Positions 36,000 through 42,117 of a DNA stretch of 64,000 bases are shown here, in pieces. Under the pieces are notes generated by a model, which saw nothing but the letters and a program-made list of their open reading frames with translations, ran no database searches and was not told the DNA's origin. Both the position numbers and the translations under genes were made by a program. The stretch covers positions 1,132,681 through 1,196,680 of the forward strand of contig NZ_BSTD01000001.1 in NCBI RefSeq assembly GCF_030269325.1, read 5' to 3'. Origin of the DNA: Amycolatopsis sp. NBRC 101858 (GTDB taxonomy: Bacteria > Actinomycetota > Actinomycetes > Mycobacteriales > Pseudonocardiaceae). Position 1 is the first letter of the stretch, and the number at the start of each line of letters is the position of its first letter.

Positions 36000-37142
36000 T
36001 TACGCGCGGCTGCGACGCCGGTTCAGCAGCAGCATCAGCGCGCCGCCGCCGAGCAGCAGGCCGCCGACGGTGAACGGAACCGCGGCGTCGACACCGGTGT
36101 TGGCGAGGTCGCCGCCACCGCCGTTCGAACCGGCCGGGGTGCTCGGCGCGGTGCTCGGGGCACCGGCCTCGGTCCAGCTGGCGGCCGCGTTCGCGGTCAC
36201 CTCGGTCTTCTCCGAGTCGGCGACGATCAGCGACTGCGCCGGCTTCTTCGCGTAGTTGTCGGCGACGAACAGGCGGCCGGTGTCCAGCTCGCCGGTGGCC
36301 TTGAGGGTGAAGGCGCCCTTGCCCGGCGTGGTGCCCGCCGGGACGTCGACGAACAGCTTGCTGCCGTCCTTGACGTCCGAGCCCTTCAGCTCCTTGCCGT
36401 CGGCGTCGGTGATCTTGACGCCCTCGGGCAGCTGGCTGGTCAGCGAGGTGACGTCCCCGCTGGTGGCGACGCTGTACGGGCCGATCTTGCCACCGGCCGT
36501 GCCCTCGGTCTTGTCCGCGGCGATGTTCAGCGTCGGCTTCGGCTGCTCGCCGATGCCCTTGTTCTGGTCACCGGTGAAGTACGCGTAGAGCGCGGCGACG
36601 TCGGCGTTCGCGTCGGCCGAGTTCTCCTCGGCCAGCGGCTTGGTGGCGTCCAGGTTCACGCCGTCGCTGAAGTGCCACACGGCGGCCTGCGTCGCGGCGA
36701 TGGCCTCGCGCTCGGAGACGCCGTCGTGGACCTCGACGCCGGCCTTCTTCAGCGCCTTGCCCAGCGCGTCGAGGCCGGTGCCCGGGTAGCCGTTGTGCAG
36801 CACCCAGTTGATCTTCGCGCTGTTGGCCTTGAACGGGCCTTCGGCGGGGTACTTGTTCCACGGCCGCTCGACCATGTCGACGTCGGTGCGCAGGCCGACG
36901 GTGATCTGCACGCAGTAGAGCTTCAGCGTGCTGCCGTTGGAGAGCTTCATCTCGAACAGTTCGGCGATGTAGTCGCCGCCCTTGCCGAGGTTGAGCCGGT
37001 ACCCGACCGTGCCACCGTGCTCGTCGACACGGCCGCGAGCGGCACCATCGTCGGCGAGAGCGGCCGGCGAGCTGATCATCACGGCAGCGGCCGCGGCGAG
37101 AGCCGCGATCCCGCCACGCACGAGAGTGGACCTGACCTGCAT
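36000..37142 (-). CDS. Cell-wall-anchored TQxA thioester-domain protein (LAxTG)
   Basis: 380 residues from ATG at 37142, AGGAG four bases upstream. A signal peptide ends at ALA. The N-terminal domain has the cysteine of an internal thioester in LKLYCVQI and the TQxA signature in AIAATQAAVWHFSDG, as in TQxA adhesins that bond covalently to host or surface amines. A second Ig-like domain (about 215-325) and a Ser/Pro/Gly linker follow. The end is a complete sorting signal: LANTG, hydrophobic helix, RRRSRA. LAxTG is recognised by class E sortases; none is in the window, the nearby enzyme at 5175 being class F. It is monocistronic with its own strong terminator. Confidence 0.88.
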   Translation of the reverse strand: MQVRSTLVRGGIAALAAAAAVMISSPAALADDGAARGRVDEHGGTVGYRLNLGKGGDYIAELFEMKLSNGSTLKLYCVQITVGLRTDVDMVERPWNKYPAEGPFKANSAKINWVLHNGYPGTGLDALGKALKKAGVEVHDGVSEREAIAATQAAVWHFSDGVNLDATKPLAEENSADANADVAALYAYFTGDQNKGIGEQPKPTLNIAADKTEGTAGGKIGPYSVATSGDVTSLTSQLPEGVKITDADGKELKGSDVKDGSKLFVDVPAGTTPGKGAFTLKATGELDTGRLFVADNYAKKPAQSLIVADSEKTEVTANAAASWTEAGAPSTAPSTPAGSNGGGGDLANTGVDAAVPFTVGGLLLGGGALMLLLNRRRSRA

Positions 37143-39250: not shown

Positions 39251-40570
39251 TCAGCCCGCTGTCGGCGCCGCGGTGACCTGGTCCGGCGCGGGCCACCCCG
39301 ACCGGCTTTGGAAGTACTGGGAAGCTTCGGGGCTGTCGTTGAACTCGAGGATGGTCCCGAGCTTCTCCGCCAGGACGGCGCGGACCTCCTGCGGCGTGAT
39401 GAAGAAGAATTCACGCCGCAGGTTCACCCGGTTCAGCCGTCGGTCGGCGAAGATGTCGTGCAGCTCGTTCTCGAGAGCCACCGCGTCCTCCGAGAAGTGC
39501 AGGAGGTGGGTGTCGAAGGGGAACGGCACCGAAGCGTCGCCGAGTTCGAGGATGCGGTCCCTCGGTTCGAGCCGCCGGGTCATCCCGATCTTGACCACCT
39601 TGTCACCGAATGCACCGATGTTGCTGATGACGTACACGTACCCCGCGCGGATGTTCGCGATCCGGTAGTCGTTCTGAGCGATCGCACGGTCGATCGCCGA
39701 CAGCCGGTCTCGAAGGTCTCCGGCTTCCTCGTCTTTGCCCTGTTCCGCGAGTTTCGCCAGGGCGTTGGCGTAGTGATCACGTTCCTTCTCGAGCCGATCG
39801 CGTTCGGCCTGCAACTCCGCTTCGGCTCGTTTCTCCTCGCGCAGACGCTCGCGTTCGGCCCTCGCCGCTTCTCGTTCCTCCTGCACTTTGAACTGGTAAT
39901 CACCAGTCAGCTCGATCTCACGCAGACGGAGGTCGTGGTACTCGGGCGAGACTCGCATCTCCATCATCTTGCCGAGCTTCGCGATCGCCTCGACCGATCT
40001 GTCGAGACGCTGTTTCGCCGAAGCGACGGTTCCGGCGCGCACCGATCGGACACAGTTGTCGGCCTCGGCGTTGTACGTGCGGAGCATCAGCTTCGAGAAA
40101 TCCGCGGTCATCTTCCGCCCTTGGGCCAACGAGTTGTTGTAGGCGAATCGTTCGGCCGCGAGGATGGCGTTGCCATCCTTCACGAAGTCCCTGACGTCCT
40201 GACGGATCGAGGCAAGGGCTTCCTTGTACTGGAGGGCGCTCTCGAGGGGGTGGTGGTACTCGTAGATCCCGACCTGCTGCAGCAGAACTGCGTCATCGAG
40301 CTCGACCAGCTCGCTCCGCGCCCGCGCTATTCGCTGACGGAGTTCCTGCAACTCCTGCTGAGCCGATGCTCGGAGCGCCTCATCCTCGGAAAGGCCTGCC
40401 GGTGCCGCGCGCTCTTCAGTGACCGCCGCCGCCGGTTCGTCGAGCACCCAGAACTGCCAGCCGAAGGGGGCGGGCGGCCACGCCGGAGGAGGCTGCCAAC
40501 CTTGCGGCGGCACCCACCCCGGTTCGGGCAACGGCCATCCCGGCGGCGGAGCGAATCGCAAGCCGTTCAC
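39251..40570 (-). CDS. DUF4041/GIY-YIG (T5orf172-type) nuclease-like protein
   Basis: 439 residues from ATG at 40570. The first 45 residues are Pro/Trp-rich (PPGWP, EPGW, PQGWQ). A helical middle (about 80-260) corresponds to DUF4041, then a coiled coil of Glu/Arg (about 225-290). The C-terminal 110 residues are a T5orf172/Mug113 GIY-YIG domain: GYVYVISNIG, VKIGMTRR, ALENELHDIF and REFFFITPQEV. Catalytic Tyr, Arg and Glu positions appear retained. The family occurs in phages, plasmids and genomic islands; its substrate is uncertain. It is second in a two-gene operon, 25 nt after a coiled-coil partner. Confidence 0.8.
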   Translation of the reverse strand: MNGLRFAPPPGWPLPEPGWVPPQGWQPPPAWPPAPFGWQFWVLDEPAAAVTEERAAPAGLSEDEALRASAQQELQELRQRIARARSELVELDDAVLLQQVGIYEYHHPLESALQYKEALASIRQDVRDFVKDGNAILAAERFAYNNSLAQGRKMTADFSKLMLRTYNAEADNCVRSVRAGTVASAKQRLDRSVEAIAKLGKMMEMRVSPEYHDLRLREIELTGDYQFKVQEEREAARAERERLREEKRAEAELQAERDRLEKERDHYANALAKLAEQGKDEEAGDLRDRLSAIDRAIAQNDYRIANIRAGYVYVISNIGAFGDKVVKIGMTRRLEPRDRILELGDASVPFPFDTHLLHFSEDAVALENELHDIFADRRLNRVNLRREFFFITPQEVRAVLAEKLGTILEFNDSPEASQYFQSRSGWPAPDQVTAAPTAG

Positions 40571-40595
40571 CGGAAACTCCTCCTGGTGACGGCGA

Positions 40596-41864
40596 TCATC
40601 CGCGAACGCCCTTCTTGTCGTCGATCGGCGTCATGCGGTGCGGCGCCTTCGACACCACGGCACGAAGATGCTTCAACGTCTCCGACGGAGTGATCCTGGC
40701 GAGGTCGATCTCCGCGAAGTCCTCGCGGCTGACCGCCAACGCGATGAGCCGGACGAACACGTCCTTGCCGACCGCCGGGTCGACGTGGTTGACCCCGCCG
40801 ACCAGGGAGATGCTGTCGATGTGGCCGGCTCGGTCCGACTCCCACACCTCGTGCACGGTCCGCAGTGTCATGTTGTTGACCAGCTCGGCGTACCGGACAC
40901 TGGTATCCCGCTGCGGCAGCTTGGTTTCCGCGATCTCGTCGCCGGCGCGCACGTAACGGAAGGCCTTGGTCGCCGGGATGACGTCGGGCGGAGGGAACAC
41001 CAGCGTGATGGACAGCTCCCGGAGCTCGGCGTCGTAGGAGAAGTCGACGTCGCTGTGGGCGGCGATCACCTCCGGGTAGATGGAGTTGCCGAAGACGATG
41101 CCGATGTATTCGTCGACCGCCTCGGACTCCCCGGCGGCAAGGTGCGCGATCAGGTCGTCGAGCCGCTGGTTCTCTTCGTCCACGACTCGCTGGCGTTCGT
41201 CACACTCGGCGTCATACTGCTTTCGGTCACCGGCCAGCTTTCGCAGCCGTTCACCCTCCGCCGCTTGGTGCTGCGCGGCGGCGAACTGCTGCTGCTGGGC
41301 AATCTGCGACGCGACGGTGCGCCAAGCCGCGTGAGCTTGCTGGAACTGGGTTTGGGCCGCGGCCACCGCCGCGGCGTGCTTCTTCTTGGCGAAGACGGCC
41401 GAGAAGCCTTCCGGAGCCGCCGGCGGCCGGAAAAAGGGCTCCGGAGGGACGACAATCGGTGGCGGCGGCGGTGTCGGGGCGAGGTGCGCGGACTGGAACG
41501 GCGGATGCTGGGCCACGCGGCGGAGCTTTTCCAAGTCGACATAGTCGTCGACGGCCAAAGTCGACTCGAGCACGGTGTCGATCGCGGCGAGCTCTTCGCG
41601 CAGGTCGGCGTTGAGCGATTCCACCTTGGTTTGCTGGGCCTCGACGTGAAGCCGTTTCGCTTCCCGCTCCGCCTGCGCCGCCGCTTGCGCGGAGGCACGC
41701 GTCATGCGTTCGCGCGCCACCGCGGCAGCGGCTTGGGCACGGTGCATTTCCCGCTCGAGGCGCACCCGTTCGCGCTCCGCCGCGGCGGCCTGCCGTGCCC
41801 GCTCTTTCTGTGCCTTCGCCGCTTGGTACTGCATCTCGGCGAAGAACCCGCGCCGACGCCCCAT
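40596..41864 (-). CDS. Coiled-coil protein of unknown function, partner of GIY-YIG gene
   Basis: 422 residues from ATG at 41864, with GGAGG seven bases upstream. The first 100 residues are an Ala/Glu/Arg/Gln coiled coil (MGRRRGFFAEMQYQAAKAQK start), followed by a Pro-rich linker (APTPPPPPIVVPPEP), a second coiled coil (about 185-265), and a globular C-terminal domain of about 160 residues (SDVDFSYDAELRELSITLVF, ISLVGGVNHVDPAVGKD). I do not recognise the C-terminal domain. Codon bias is slightly less GC-extreme than in neighbours. It leads a two-gene operon whose second gene is a GIY-YIG protein, and lies directly downstream of a tRNA 3' end. Confidence 0.7.
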   Translation of the reverse strand: MGRRRGFFAEMQYQAAKAQKERARQAAAAERERVRLEREMHRAQAAAAVARERMTRASAQAAAQAEREAKRLHVEAQQTKVESLNADLREELAAIDTVLESTLAVDDYVDLEKLRRVAQHPPFQSAHLAPTPPPPPIVVPPEPFFRPPAAPEGFSAVFAKKKHAAAVAAAQTQFQQAHAAWRTVASQIAQQQQFAAAQHQAAEGERLRKLAGDRKQYDAECDERQRVVDEENQRLDDLIAHLAAGESEAVDEYIGIVFGNSIYPEVIAAHSDVDFSYDAELRELSITLVFPPPDVIPATKAFRYVRAGDEIAETKLPQRDTSVRYAELVNNMTLRTVHEVWESDRAGHIDSISLVGGVNHVDPAVGKDVFVRLIALAVSREDFAEIDLARITPSETLKHLRAVVSKAPHRMTPIDDKKGVRG

Positions 41865-42040: not shown

Positions 42041-42117
42041 TGGTGCCCCCGACGGGGTTCGAACCCGCACTTTGTCGATTTTAAGTCGACTGCCTCTGCC
42101 AGTTGGGCTACGGGGGC
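42041..42117 (-). tRNA. tRNA with anticodon UAA, short variable loop (encoded CCA)
   Basis: On the minus strand the acceptor arms GCCCCCG and CGGGGGC pair perfectly. The D arm is GCC/GGC with GG in the loop, the anticodon stem is GTCGA/TCGAC around loop CTTAAAA, the variable loop is five bases (AAAGT), and the T arm GCGGG/CCCGT carries TTCGAAC. Discriminator A is followed by CCA. Positions 34-36 read TAA, which would decode the leucine codon UUA, but leucine tRNAs have a long variable arm and this one does not. Amino-acid identity is therefore uncertain. Its 5' end lies 24 bases downstream of the GH18 chitinase stop. Confidence 0.8.

What the first reader, a model, noticed from the sequence alone, without database searches (positions are those of the whole stretch)
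39251..41864. Coiled-coil plus DUF4041/GIY-YIG gene pair beside a tRNA: candidate defence or mobile module
Two genes in one operon, an unknown protein with two coiled coils and a novel C-terminal domain, and a nuclease-like DUF4041/T5orf172 protein, sit just past the 3' end of the odd tRNA. tRNA 3' ends are integration hotspots and T5orf172 domains are frequent in phages and islands. No integrase or attachment repeat is visible, so if it arrived horizontally it did so long ago or without one. The pair could be a compact anti-phage system or a DNA-maintenance complex.
Basis: inference. Interest (0 to 1): 0.6.

Follow-up and report, generated by a model that had tools for sequence, protein, structure and literature searches.

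The report
Two-gene SNIPE-type phage defence unit
Two adjacent genes beside a tRNA look like a mobile two-part bacterial defence unit: a known type of phage-DNA-cutting enzyme plus an undescribed partner protein that, in other bacteria, is built onto a different DNA-cutting enzyme.

Summary
Gene B (40570..39251, -) is a homologue of the anti-phage nuclease SNIPE/PD-lambda-1: DUF4041 plus GIY-YIG, 31% identical to the E. coli-phage copy, catalytic Glu414 conserved as Glu367, no hydrophobic anchor by hydropathy. Gene A (41864..40596, -) has two long helices and a C-terminal alpha/beta domain without a clear structural match. Its family comes in two arrangements: of 71 A loci in three genome surveys, 20 lie next to a SNIPE-type gene, 44 carry a C-terminal Mrr nuclease (some interrupted), 7 have neither, none has both. 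In two genomes both proteins carry a TerD domain. A and B co-diverge (r 0.94). The pair is in 9 of 80 genomes of the genus (A broken in two) at four sites, and on a Kocuria plasmid. At 5 of 18 chromosomal sites a tRNA 3' end faces it within 1.3 kb. Between tRNA-Leu(taa) and the P450 lie 2.8 to 94 kb of variable DNA in seven genomes; the window copy has no att repeat. Best reading: a two-component SNIPE variant in which A targets or licenses B. Defence and A-B contact are inferred. New variant of a known kind.

The parts
40596..41864 (-). Gene A, 422 aa: partner protein (two long helices and a C-terminal alpha/beta domain)
41577..41852 (-). A residues 5-96, first long helix (predicted)
   Evidence: AlphaFold2 model
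41136..41399 (-). A residues 156-243, second long helix (predicted)
   Evidence: AlphaFold2 model
40620..41126 (-). A residues 247-415, alpha/beta domain; in other bacteria the Mrr nuclease follows directly after this domain
   Evidence: no clear fold match
39251..40570 (-). Gene B, 439 aa: SNIPE/PD-lambda-1 homologue
40445..40570 (-). B residues 1-42, Trp/Pro-rich (PPGW) N-terminus in place of the SNIPE transmembrane segment
39926..40093 (-). B residues 160-215, DUF4041
   Evidence: PF13250, 1e-20
39368..39643 (-). B residues 310-401, GIY-YIG nuclease (T5orf172/MUG113); Glu367 aligns with catalytic Glu414 of SNIPE
42041..42117 (-). tRNA-Leu(taa), whose 3' end faces the pair (hotspot anchor)

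Best explanation
The pair is a two-component anti-phage nuclease. B is a SNIPE-family GIY-YIG nuclease that cuts incoming phage DNA, with DUF4041 binding DNA and phage injection proteins (shown for E. coli SNIPE in PMC13190303; for B inferred from homology and the conserved catalytic Glu). A, translated just before B, binds B and acts as its targeting or licensing subunit, so that B cuts only foreign or entering DNA. In related bacteria the same A module does this job in cis for an unrelated Mrr nuclease at its C-terminus. The two genes move together as a cassette and here sit in the tRNA-Leu(taa) hotspot. Shown: the homologies, tight linkage, the alternation between two nucleases, co-divergence, several sites. 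Inferred: A-B contact, the role of A, phage defence.
For: B: PD-Lambda-1 profile 3.4e-106; 116 of 378 aligned residues identical to the PD-lambda-1 protein of phage PhiR26_1, Glu414 = Glu367. A: mREase_IV 9.8e-29 over the N-terminal part of that model; five of six longer A relatives scanned have Mrr_cat at 1e-28 to 1e-31, and one of them matches the same PADLOC model over nearly its full length, 1.3e-103. Alternation: 71 loci, 20 paired, 44 with Mrr, 7 neither, 0 both. A and B overlap or lie at most 66 nt apart in the 20 A-B loci printed, by my choice of B start. B-A order with a TerD domain on both proteins in G251 and G191. A and B distances correlate, r 0.94 over 18 loci and 0.97 over 13, 0 of 5000 permutations as high. 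In the B tree paired genes need two changes and one clade is rejected, p-AU 0.0155. Patchy and mobile: 9 of 80 genomes, different sites, a Kocuria plasmid copy beside HEPN and DUF262 genes.
Against: No phage or binding data. Four of 71 A loci are stand-alone distant A genes without either nuclease, two of them between a glutamine-synthetase-like gene and a kinase gene (gene names by eye). The six solo SNIPE-type genes of the genus measured also lack a hydrophobic segment and have no A, so lack of an anchor does not by itself explain A; 33 of 45 full-length B places in the order survey have no A next to them. In G066 gene A is in two frames while B is open: A may be dispensable there, or the assembly wrong. 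In the A tree a single origin of pairing is not rejected (p-AU 0.135), and the branch that separates the TerD pair in the B tree is long. Of ten neighbour proteins scanned two matched PADLOC, so a defence island is not established.
Confidence: 0.6

Rival explanations
1. A is a restraint (antitoxin-like inhibitor) of B: without a membrane anchor B would cut host DNA, and A keeps it silent until infection.
For: SNIPE without its transmembrane segment is toxic through its nuclease (PMC13190303, passages); B has no hydrophobic segment; A is translated first and tightly coupled in all but two pair loci.
Against: The six solo SNIPE-type genes of the genus measured lack an anchor too and have no A. 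G066 keeps an open B with A in two frames. In 44 loci A precedes another nuclease, mostly in one chain, which fits a targeting part better than an inhibitor.
Confidence: 0.2
2. A is a DNA or modification reader of a type IV restriction-like system: the pair cuts modified foreign DNA in the cytoplasm, not DNA at the moment of injection.
For: PADLOC files A-Mrr fusions as type IV methyl-directed enzymes. Type IV nucleases are attached to recognition parts covalently or, for McrC, by protein contact (PMC3874153, passages). No membrane segment in A or B by hydropathy.
Against: The PADLOC name is not a test of function; no modified-base reader was among the structural matches listed for A's C-terminal domain, which is inconclusive; that domain is acidic overall (net -9).
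Confidence: 0.2
3. Ordinary co-inherited neighbours in a hotspot: B is a stand-alone SNIPE and A an unrelated gene that rides along.
For: Solo B genes are common: in the order survey 12 of 45 full-length B places have A next to them and 33 do not.
Against: 20 of 71 A loci pair with B, mostly at unrelated sites and in many genera; two gene orders and shared TerD domains; co-divergence; no locus with both Mrr and an adjacent B.
Confidence: 0.08

Closest known systems
SNIPE / PD-lambda-1 (E. coli anti-phage nuclease; PMC13190303, PMC9519451)
   Same: DUF4041 followed by a GIY-YIG nuclease with the catalytic Glu conserved; most of the family profile matched
   Different: No hydrophobic N-terminal anchor but a Trp/Pro-rich N-terminus; next to gene A in all 23 members of its clade in the tree; E. 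coli SNIPE is described as one protein
Mrr-type enzymes filed as mREase_IV in PADLOC
   Same: Residues 21-414 of A match positions 11-380 of the 544-position model
   Different: A lacks the Mrr nuclease; a separate GIY-YIG nuclease lies next door instead
McrBC, where the nuclease is a separate subunit (PMC3874153, passages)
   Same: Works-like analogy only: recognition part and nuclease on two proteins
   Different: No NTPase family matched in A, and none in B over its cut-off; no sequence relation was looked for

Membership tests
SNIPE / PD-lambda-1 | DUF4041 domain | tested here: met
   PF13250 1e-20 at residues 160-215
SNIPE / PD-lambda-1 | C-terminal GIY-YIG nuclease with the catalytic Glu (E414 in SNIPE) | tested here: met
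   MUG113/T5orf172; E414 aligns with E367, invariant in 21 aligned homologues
SNIPE / PD-lambda-1 | Family profile | tested here: met
   PDLC03976 3.4e-106, residues 64-423 on profile positions 101-470 of 491
SNIPE / PD-lambda-1 | N-terminal transmembrane anchor (in E. coli SNIPE; the paper predicts none in 34% of homologues, so common rather than defining) | tested here: not met
   Kyte-Doolittle 19-residue maximum 0.98 in B against 3.37 in SNIPE; crude hydropathy, not a topology predictor
SNIPE / PD-lambda-1 | Works as a single gene | not testable with these tools
   All 23 members of the window's clade in the tree are paired with A; dependence on A needs an experiment
SNIPE / PD-lambda-1 | Blocks phage by cutting DNA during injection | not testable with these tools
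   Needs phage challenge
Mrr-type (type IV) restriction enzyme, for A | Shared N-terminal module | tested here: met
   mREase_IV 9.8e-29; alignment with fused forms
Mrr-type (type IV) restriction enzyme, for A | Mrr_cat nuclease domain | tested here: not met
   No Pfam match in A; no Mrr match at the window locus (L001); A ends where the Mrr linker begins
Mrr-type (type IV) restriction enzyme, for A | Cuts modified DNA | not testable with these tools
   Needs a restriction assay
tRNA-borne integrative element | Position at a tRNA 3' end with variable occupancy | tested here: met
   tRNA-Leu to P450 interval 2.8 to 94 kb in 7 genomes
tRNA-borne integrative element | Repeat of the tRNA end on the far side (att) | tested here: not met
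   One match only in each of 9 pair genomes, up to 3 mismatches. In at least five other genomes of the genus a 40-46-base partial copy lies 0.3-12 kb downstream (capped list)
tRNA-borne integrative element | Own integrase | tested here: not met
   Only A and B lie between tRNA and P450 in the window; a serine-recombinase-like gene lies at the tRNA end in G041 and G047

The most novel reading that the evidence does not exclude
A is a portable guide-and-licence module for defence nucleases: one protein architecture that confers target choice on two unrelated nuclease folds, Mrr in cis and SNIPE GIY-YIG in trans, so that a soluble SNIPE discriminates self from phage DNA through a partner rather than through a membrane anchor.
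Probability: 0.35. Interest if true: 0.8.

Novelty: new variant of a known kind. Interest (0 to 1): 0.6.

Why it matters
SNIPE is explained as a nuclease that spares host DNA because it is held at the membrane and meets DNA during injection. A branch that shows no hydrophobic anchor and, in all 23 members sampled, sits next to a second gene poses the question of how it spares the host, and names the protein to test. The same protein module in front of an unrelated nuclease predicts that A carries the target choice; swapping nucleases on A would test this directly. The literature searches made here (in an open-licence library) listed no paper on the pair or on A that I recognised; of the papers listed I opened four.

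Tried and rejected
A conserved housekeeping operon: rejected, 9 of 80 genomes and several sites. DNA-maintenance complex: no match supports it. An att-flanked element at this spot: no repeat. Fold of A's C-terminal domain: Foldseek gave nothing at E <= 0.001 for the whole protein or the domain alone; VIA-align best Z 6.8 and 7.3, the background level stated by the tool; KH-like and prodomain-like rows among them are not claimed. Sequence search of solved structures: for A only two ATP synthase b chains (E 0.056 and 0.08), for B nothing up to 0.1. An amphipathic membrane helix at A's N-terminus: hydrophobic moment 0.13-0.41 over windows starting at residues 1-28, not persuasive. A as mere substitute for the anchor: weakened by six anchor-less solo genes. 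A in phages: no match in 50,697 records at 1e-5. Defence island: two of ten neighbour proteins matched PADLOC; Pfam showed a NACHT, a kinase/NB-ARC, a nucleoside-phosphorylase-like and a transposase-like gene among the ten, the rest ordinary or unmatched; not claimed. One origin of the pairing: not rejected in the A tree, rejected in the B tree.

Rows dropped: the A tree used 43 rows (L075 dropped because its contig has the length of L020's; near-copies, interrupted and partial genes were not given). The B tree used 43 rows, one gene entered twice (L045/L074); the partial hits L050-L054 and the solo B genes found later were not in it. The 1.3 kb limit for tRNA proximity was set after seeing the data, and one more ARAGORN call, a tRNA-Gly in G047 about 260 bp from A with its 3' end facing away, is not in the count of five.

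Full report
1. Observation. The tRNA-Leu(taa) at 42117..42041 is real and its 3' end faces gene A across 176 bp; downstream, the stop of B is 3 bp from the convergent end of a P450 gene.

2. Gene B is a SNIPE homologue. It matches DUF4041 and T5orf172/MUG113, the PADLOC PD-Lambda-1 model at 3.4e-106 and PHROG 1847 at 6.6e-110. Against the protein annotated PD-lambda-1 in phage PhiR26_1 it has 116 of 378 aligned residues identical, and catalytic Glu414 (residue named in PMC13190303, passages read) aligns with Glu367; Glu223, where the paper's E223K enhances defence, is Lys186 here. SNIPE's anchor shows as a hydropathy peak of 3.37 at residue 6; B peaks at 0.98. Its N-terminus is a Trp/Pro-rich stretch, also present in some solo SNIPE-type genes of the genus and absent from the Rhodococcus pair. 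The paper (section 9) reports variable N-termini and no predicted transmembrane segment in 34% of homologues, so this alone is not new.

3. Gene A is a module that alternates between two nucleases. A has no Pfam match and no NCBIfam match over its cut-off but matches the N-terminal part of PADLOC mREase_IV. Five of six longer A relatives scanned carry Mrr_cat at 1e-28 to 1e-31; in the sixth, L064, the reading frame is broken before it. Paired A proteins end where the linker to Mrr starts. Surveys: 14 of 80 genomes of the genus have A, 43 of 397 drawn from the order, 18 of 396 drawn from the phylum. The union is 71 distinct loci: 20 with an adjacent SNIPE-type B, 44 with a C-terminal Mrr, 7 with neither, 0 with both within the 1.5 to 3 kb of flank looked at. 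Some of the 44 are interrupted by stops or frame changes (for example G071, G004, G160, G641, G709), and two of the 20 have A in pieces (G066, G021). Of the 7, four are stand-alone distant A genes (G087 second copy, G101, G314, G259), one stops before a transposase-like gene (G711; by eye) and two are fragments (G597, G687). Outside the surveys: pairs in two Kribbella, Georgenia and Rhodococcus and one Nocardia A-Mrr, and a pair on a Kocuria rosea plasmid beside HEPN and DUF262 genes. From B's side, 12 of 45 full-length B places in the order survey adjoin A.

4. Signs that A and B act together. Tight coupling: overlap of 4 nt to a gap of 66 nt in the 20 loci printed, by my choice of B start. 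Two genomes have B before A, with a TerD domain at B's N-terminus and at A's C-terminus. Distances of A and B correlate (r 0.94 over 18 loci, 0.97 over 13). In the B tree the TerD-bearing pair falls apart from the other paired genes and one clade is rejected (p-AU 0.0155), which suggests two associations or repeated loss of A; that branch is long, and not all solo genes were sampled. The A tree also needs two changes but does not reject one clade (p-AU 0.135).

5. Structure of A. AlphaFold2 on a 44-row alignment gave mean pLDDT 92.7, pTM 0.70: helices 5-96 and 156-243, then an alpha/beta domain. The domain alone gave pLDDT 93.3, pTM 0.87. No confident relative among solved structures, which does not show that the fold is new.

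6. Mobility. In the genus the pair lies at four sites: the tRNA-Leu site (window, G066; G041 and G047 share its P450 flank), tRNA-Ala(ggc) (G079, G070), a site shared by G018 and G045, and a site in G021, the last two without a facing tRNA in view. In the 7 of 20 examined genomes that have the P450 orthologue, the tRNA-Leu to P450 interval is 2.8 kb (window, only the pair), 8.8, 17, 26 and 30 kb without the pair, and 53 and 94 kb with the pair at the P450 end (pair absence). In G041 and G047 the gene next to the tRNA is a serine-recombinase-like gene. After merging shared sites, 5 of 18 chromosomal sites (Leu, Ala, Pro, Pro, His) have a tRNA within 1.3 kb whose 3' end faces the pair; one further tRNA-Gly call, in G047, faces away. 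With 57 tRNAs in 11.16 Mb the chance is 0.7% per site, giving about 1e-7 for five or more of 18, or 4e-6 at 1.4% per site. The distance limit was chosen afterwards, and some contigs are short (G087, G121, G251).

7. Mechanism. Best reading: A targets or licenses B. Rivals: A restrains B; the pair is a modification reader with nuclease; A is a passenger. The six solo SNIPE-type genes of the genus measured also lack an anchor, so A is not simply an anchor substitute. G066 has B open with A in two frames, and G021 has A in three pieces with a shortened B; assembly errors are possible.

8. Literature. Read: PMC13190303 (abstract, sections 9 and 10, passages), PMC9519451 (passages), PMC12904381 (passages) and PMC3874153 (passages). 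Searches listed no paper that I recognised as describing the pair or A; the library holds open-licence papers only. Novelty is a claim about those searches.

Noticed in passing
42041-42117 (-): tRNA-Leu(taa) is 77 nt, without the long variable arm usual for tRNA-Leu (recalled); 80 of 80 genomes of the genus have a match to it. A tRNA-Leu(caa) of G041 is 75 nt, while Leu(gag) and Leu(cag) of the window's genome are 85 and 84 nt.
   Followed up: partly
36094-36176 (+): The tRNA-Ser(cga) call lies antisense inside the thioester-domain gene and is not among the 57 RF00005 matches of the genome: probably false.
   Followed up: yes
L149:3172-5427 and L150:3117-4601: In G041 and G047 a serine-recombinase-like gene lies at the 3' end of the same tRNA-Leu, with 94 and 53 kb before the P450.
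   Followed up: partly
G005:C41:131280-131320, G071:C1:7020592-7020632, G007:C13:250766-250805, G022:C1:6303008-6303047, G003:C1:5119215-5119260: Partial copies of the 3' part of tRNA-Leu(taa) 0.3 to 12 kb downstream of the gene in five genomes: att-like scars or ends of integrated elements.
   Followed up: no
L060:11247-18490: In G066 about 7.2 kb of extra DNA lies between tRNA-Leu and the GH18 gene that adjoins it in the window.
   Followed up: no
L160:2026-3156 and L162:1936-3081: Stand-alone A-like genes in two genomes of one genus lie between a glutamine-synthetase-like gene and a kinase gene (identified by eye), without a nuclease.
   Followed up: partly
L171:832-6101: In Agrobacterium pusense an A-related restriction endonuclease gene starts where a 3.6 kb AAA-domain gene ends: perhaps another two-gene version.
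   Followed up: no
L134:2050-10718: In G019 the tRNA-Leu to P450 slot holds other genes, among them an AAA_16, a radical SAM (weak viperin match) and a StiP-like gene.
   Followed up: partly
L183:1925-3601: Mycobacterium phage Mask carries a solo SNIPE-type gene, 51% identical to B, near its integrase and a RelB-like antitoxin gene.
   Followed up: no
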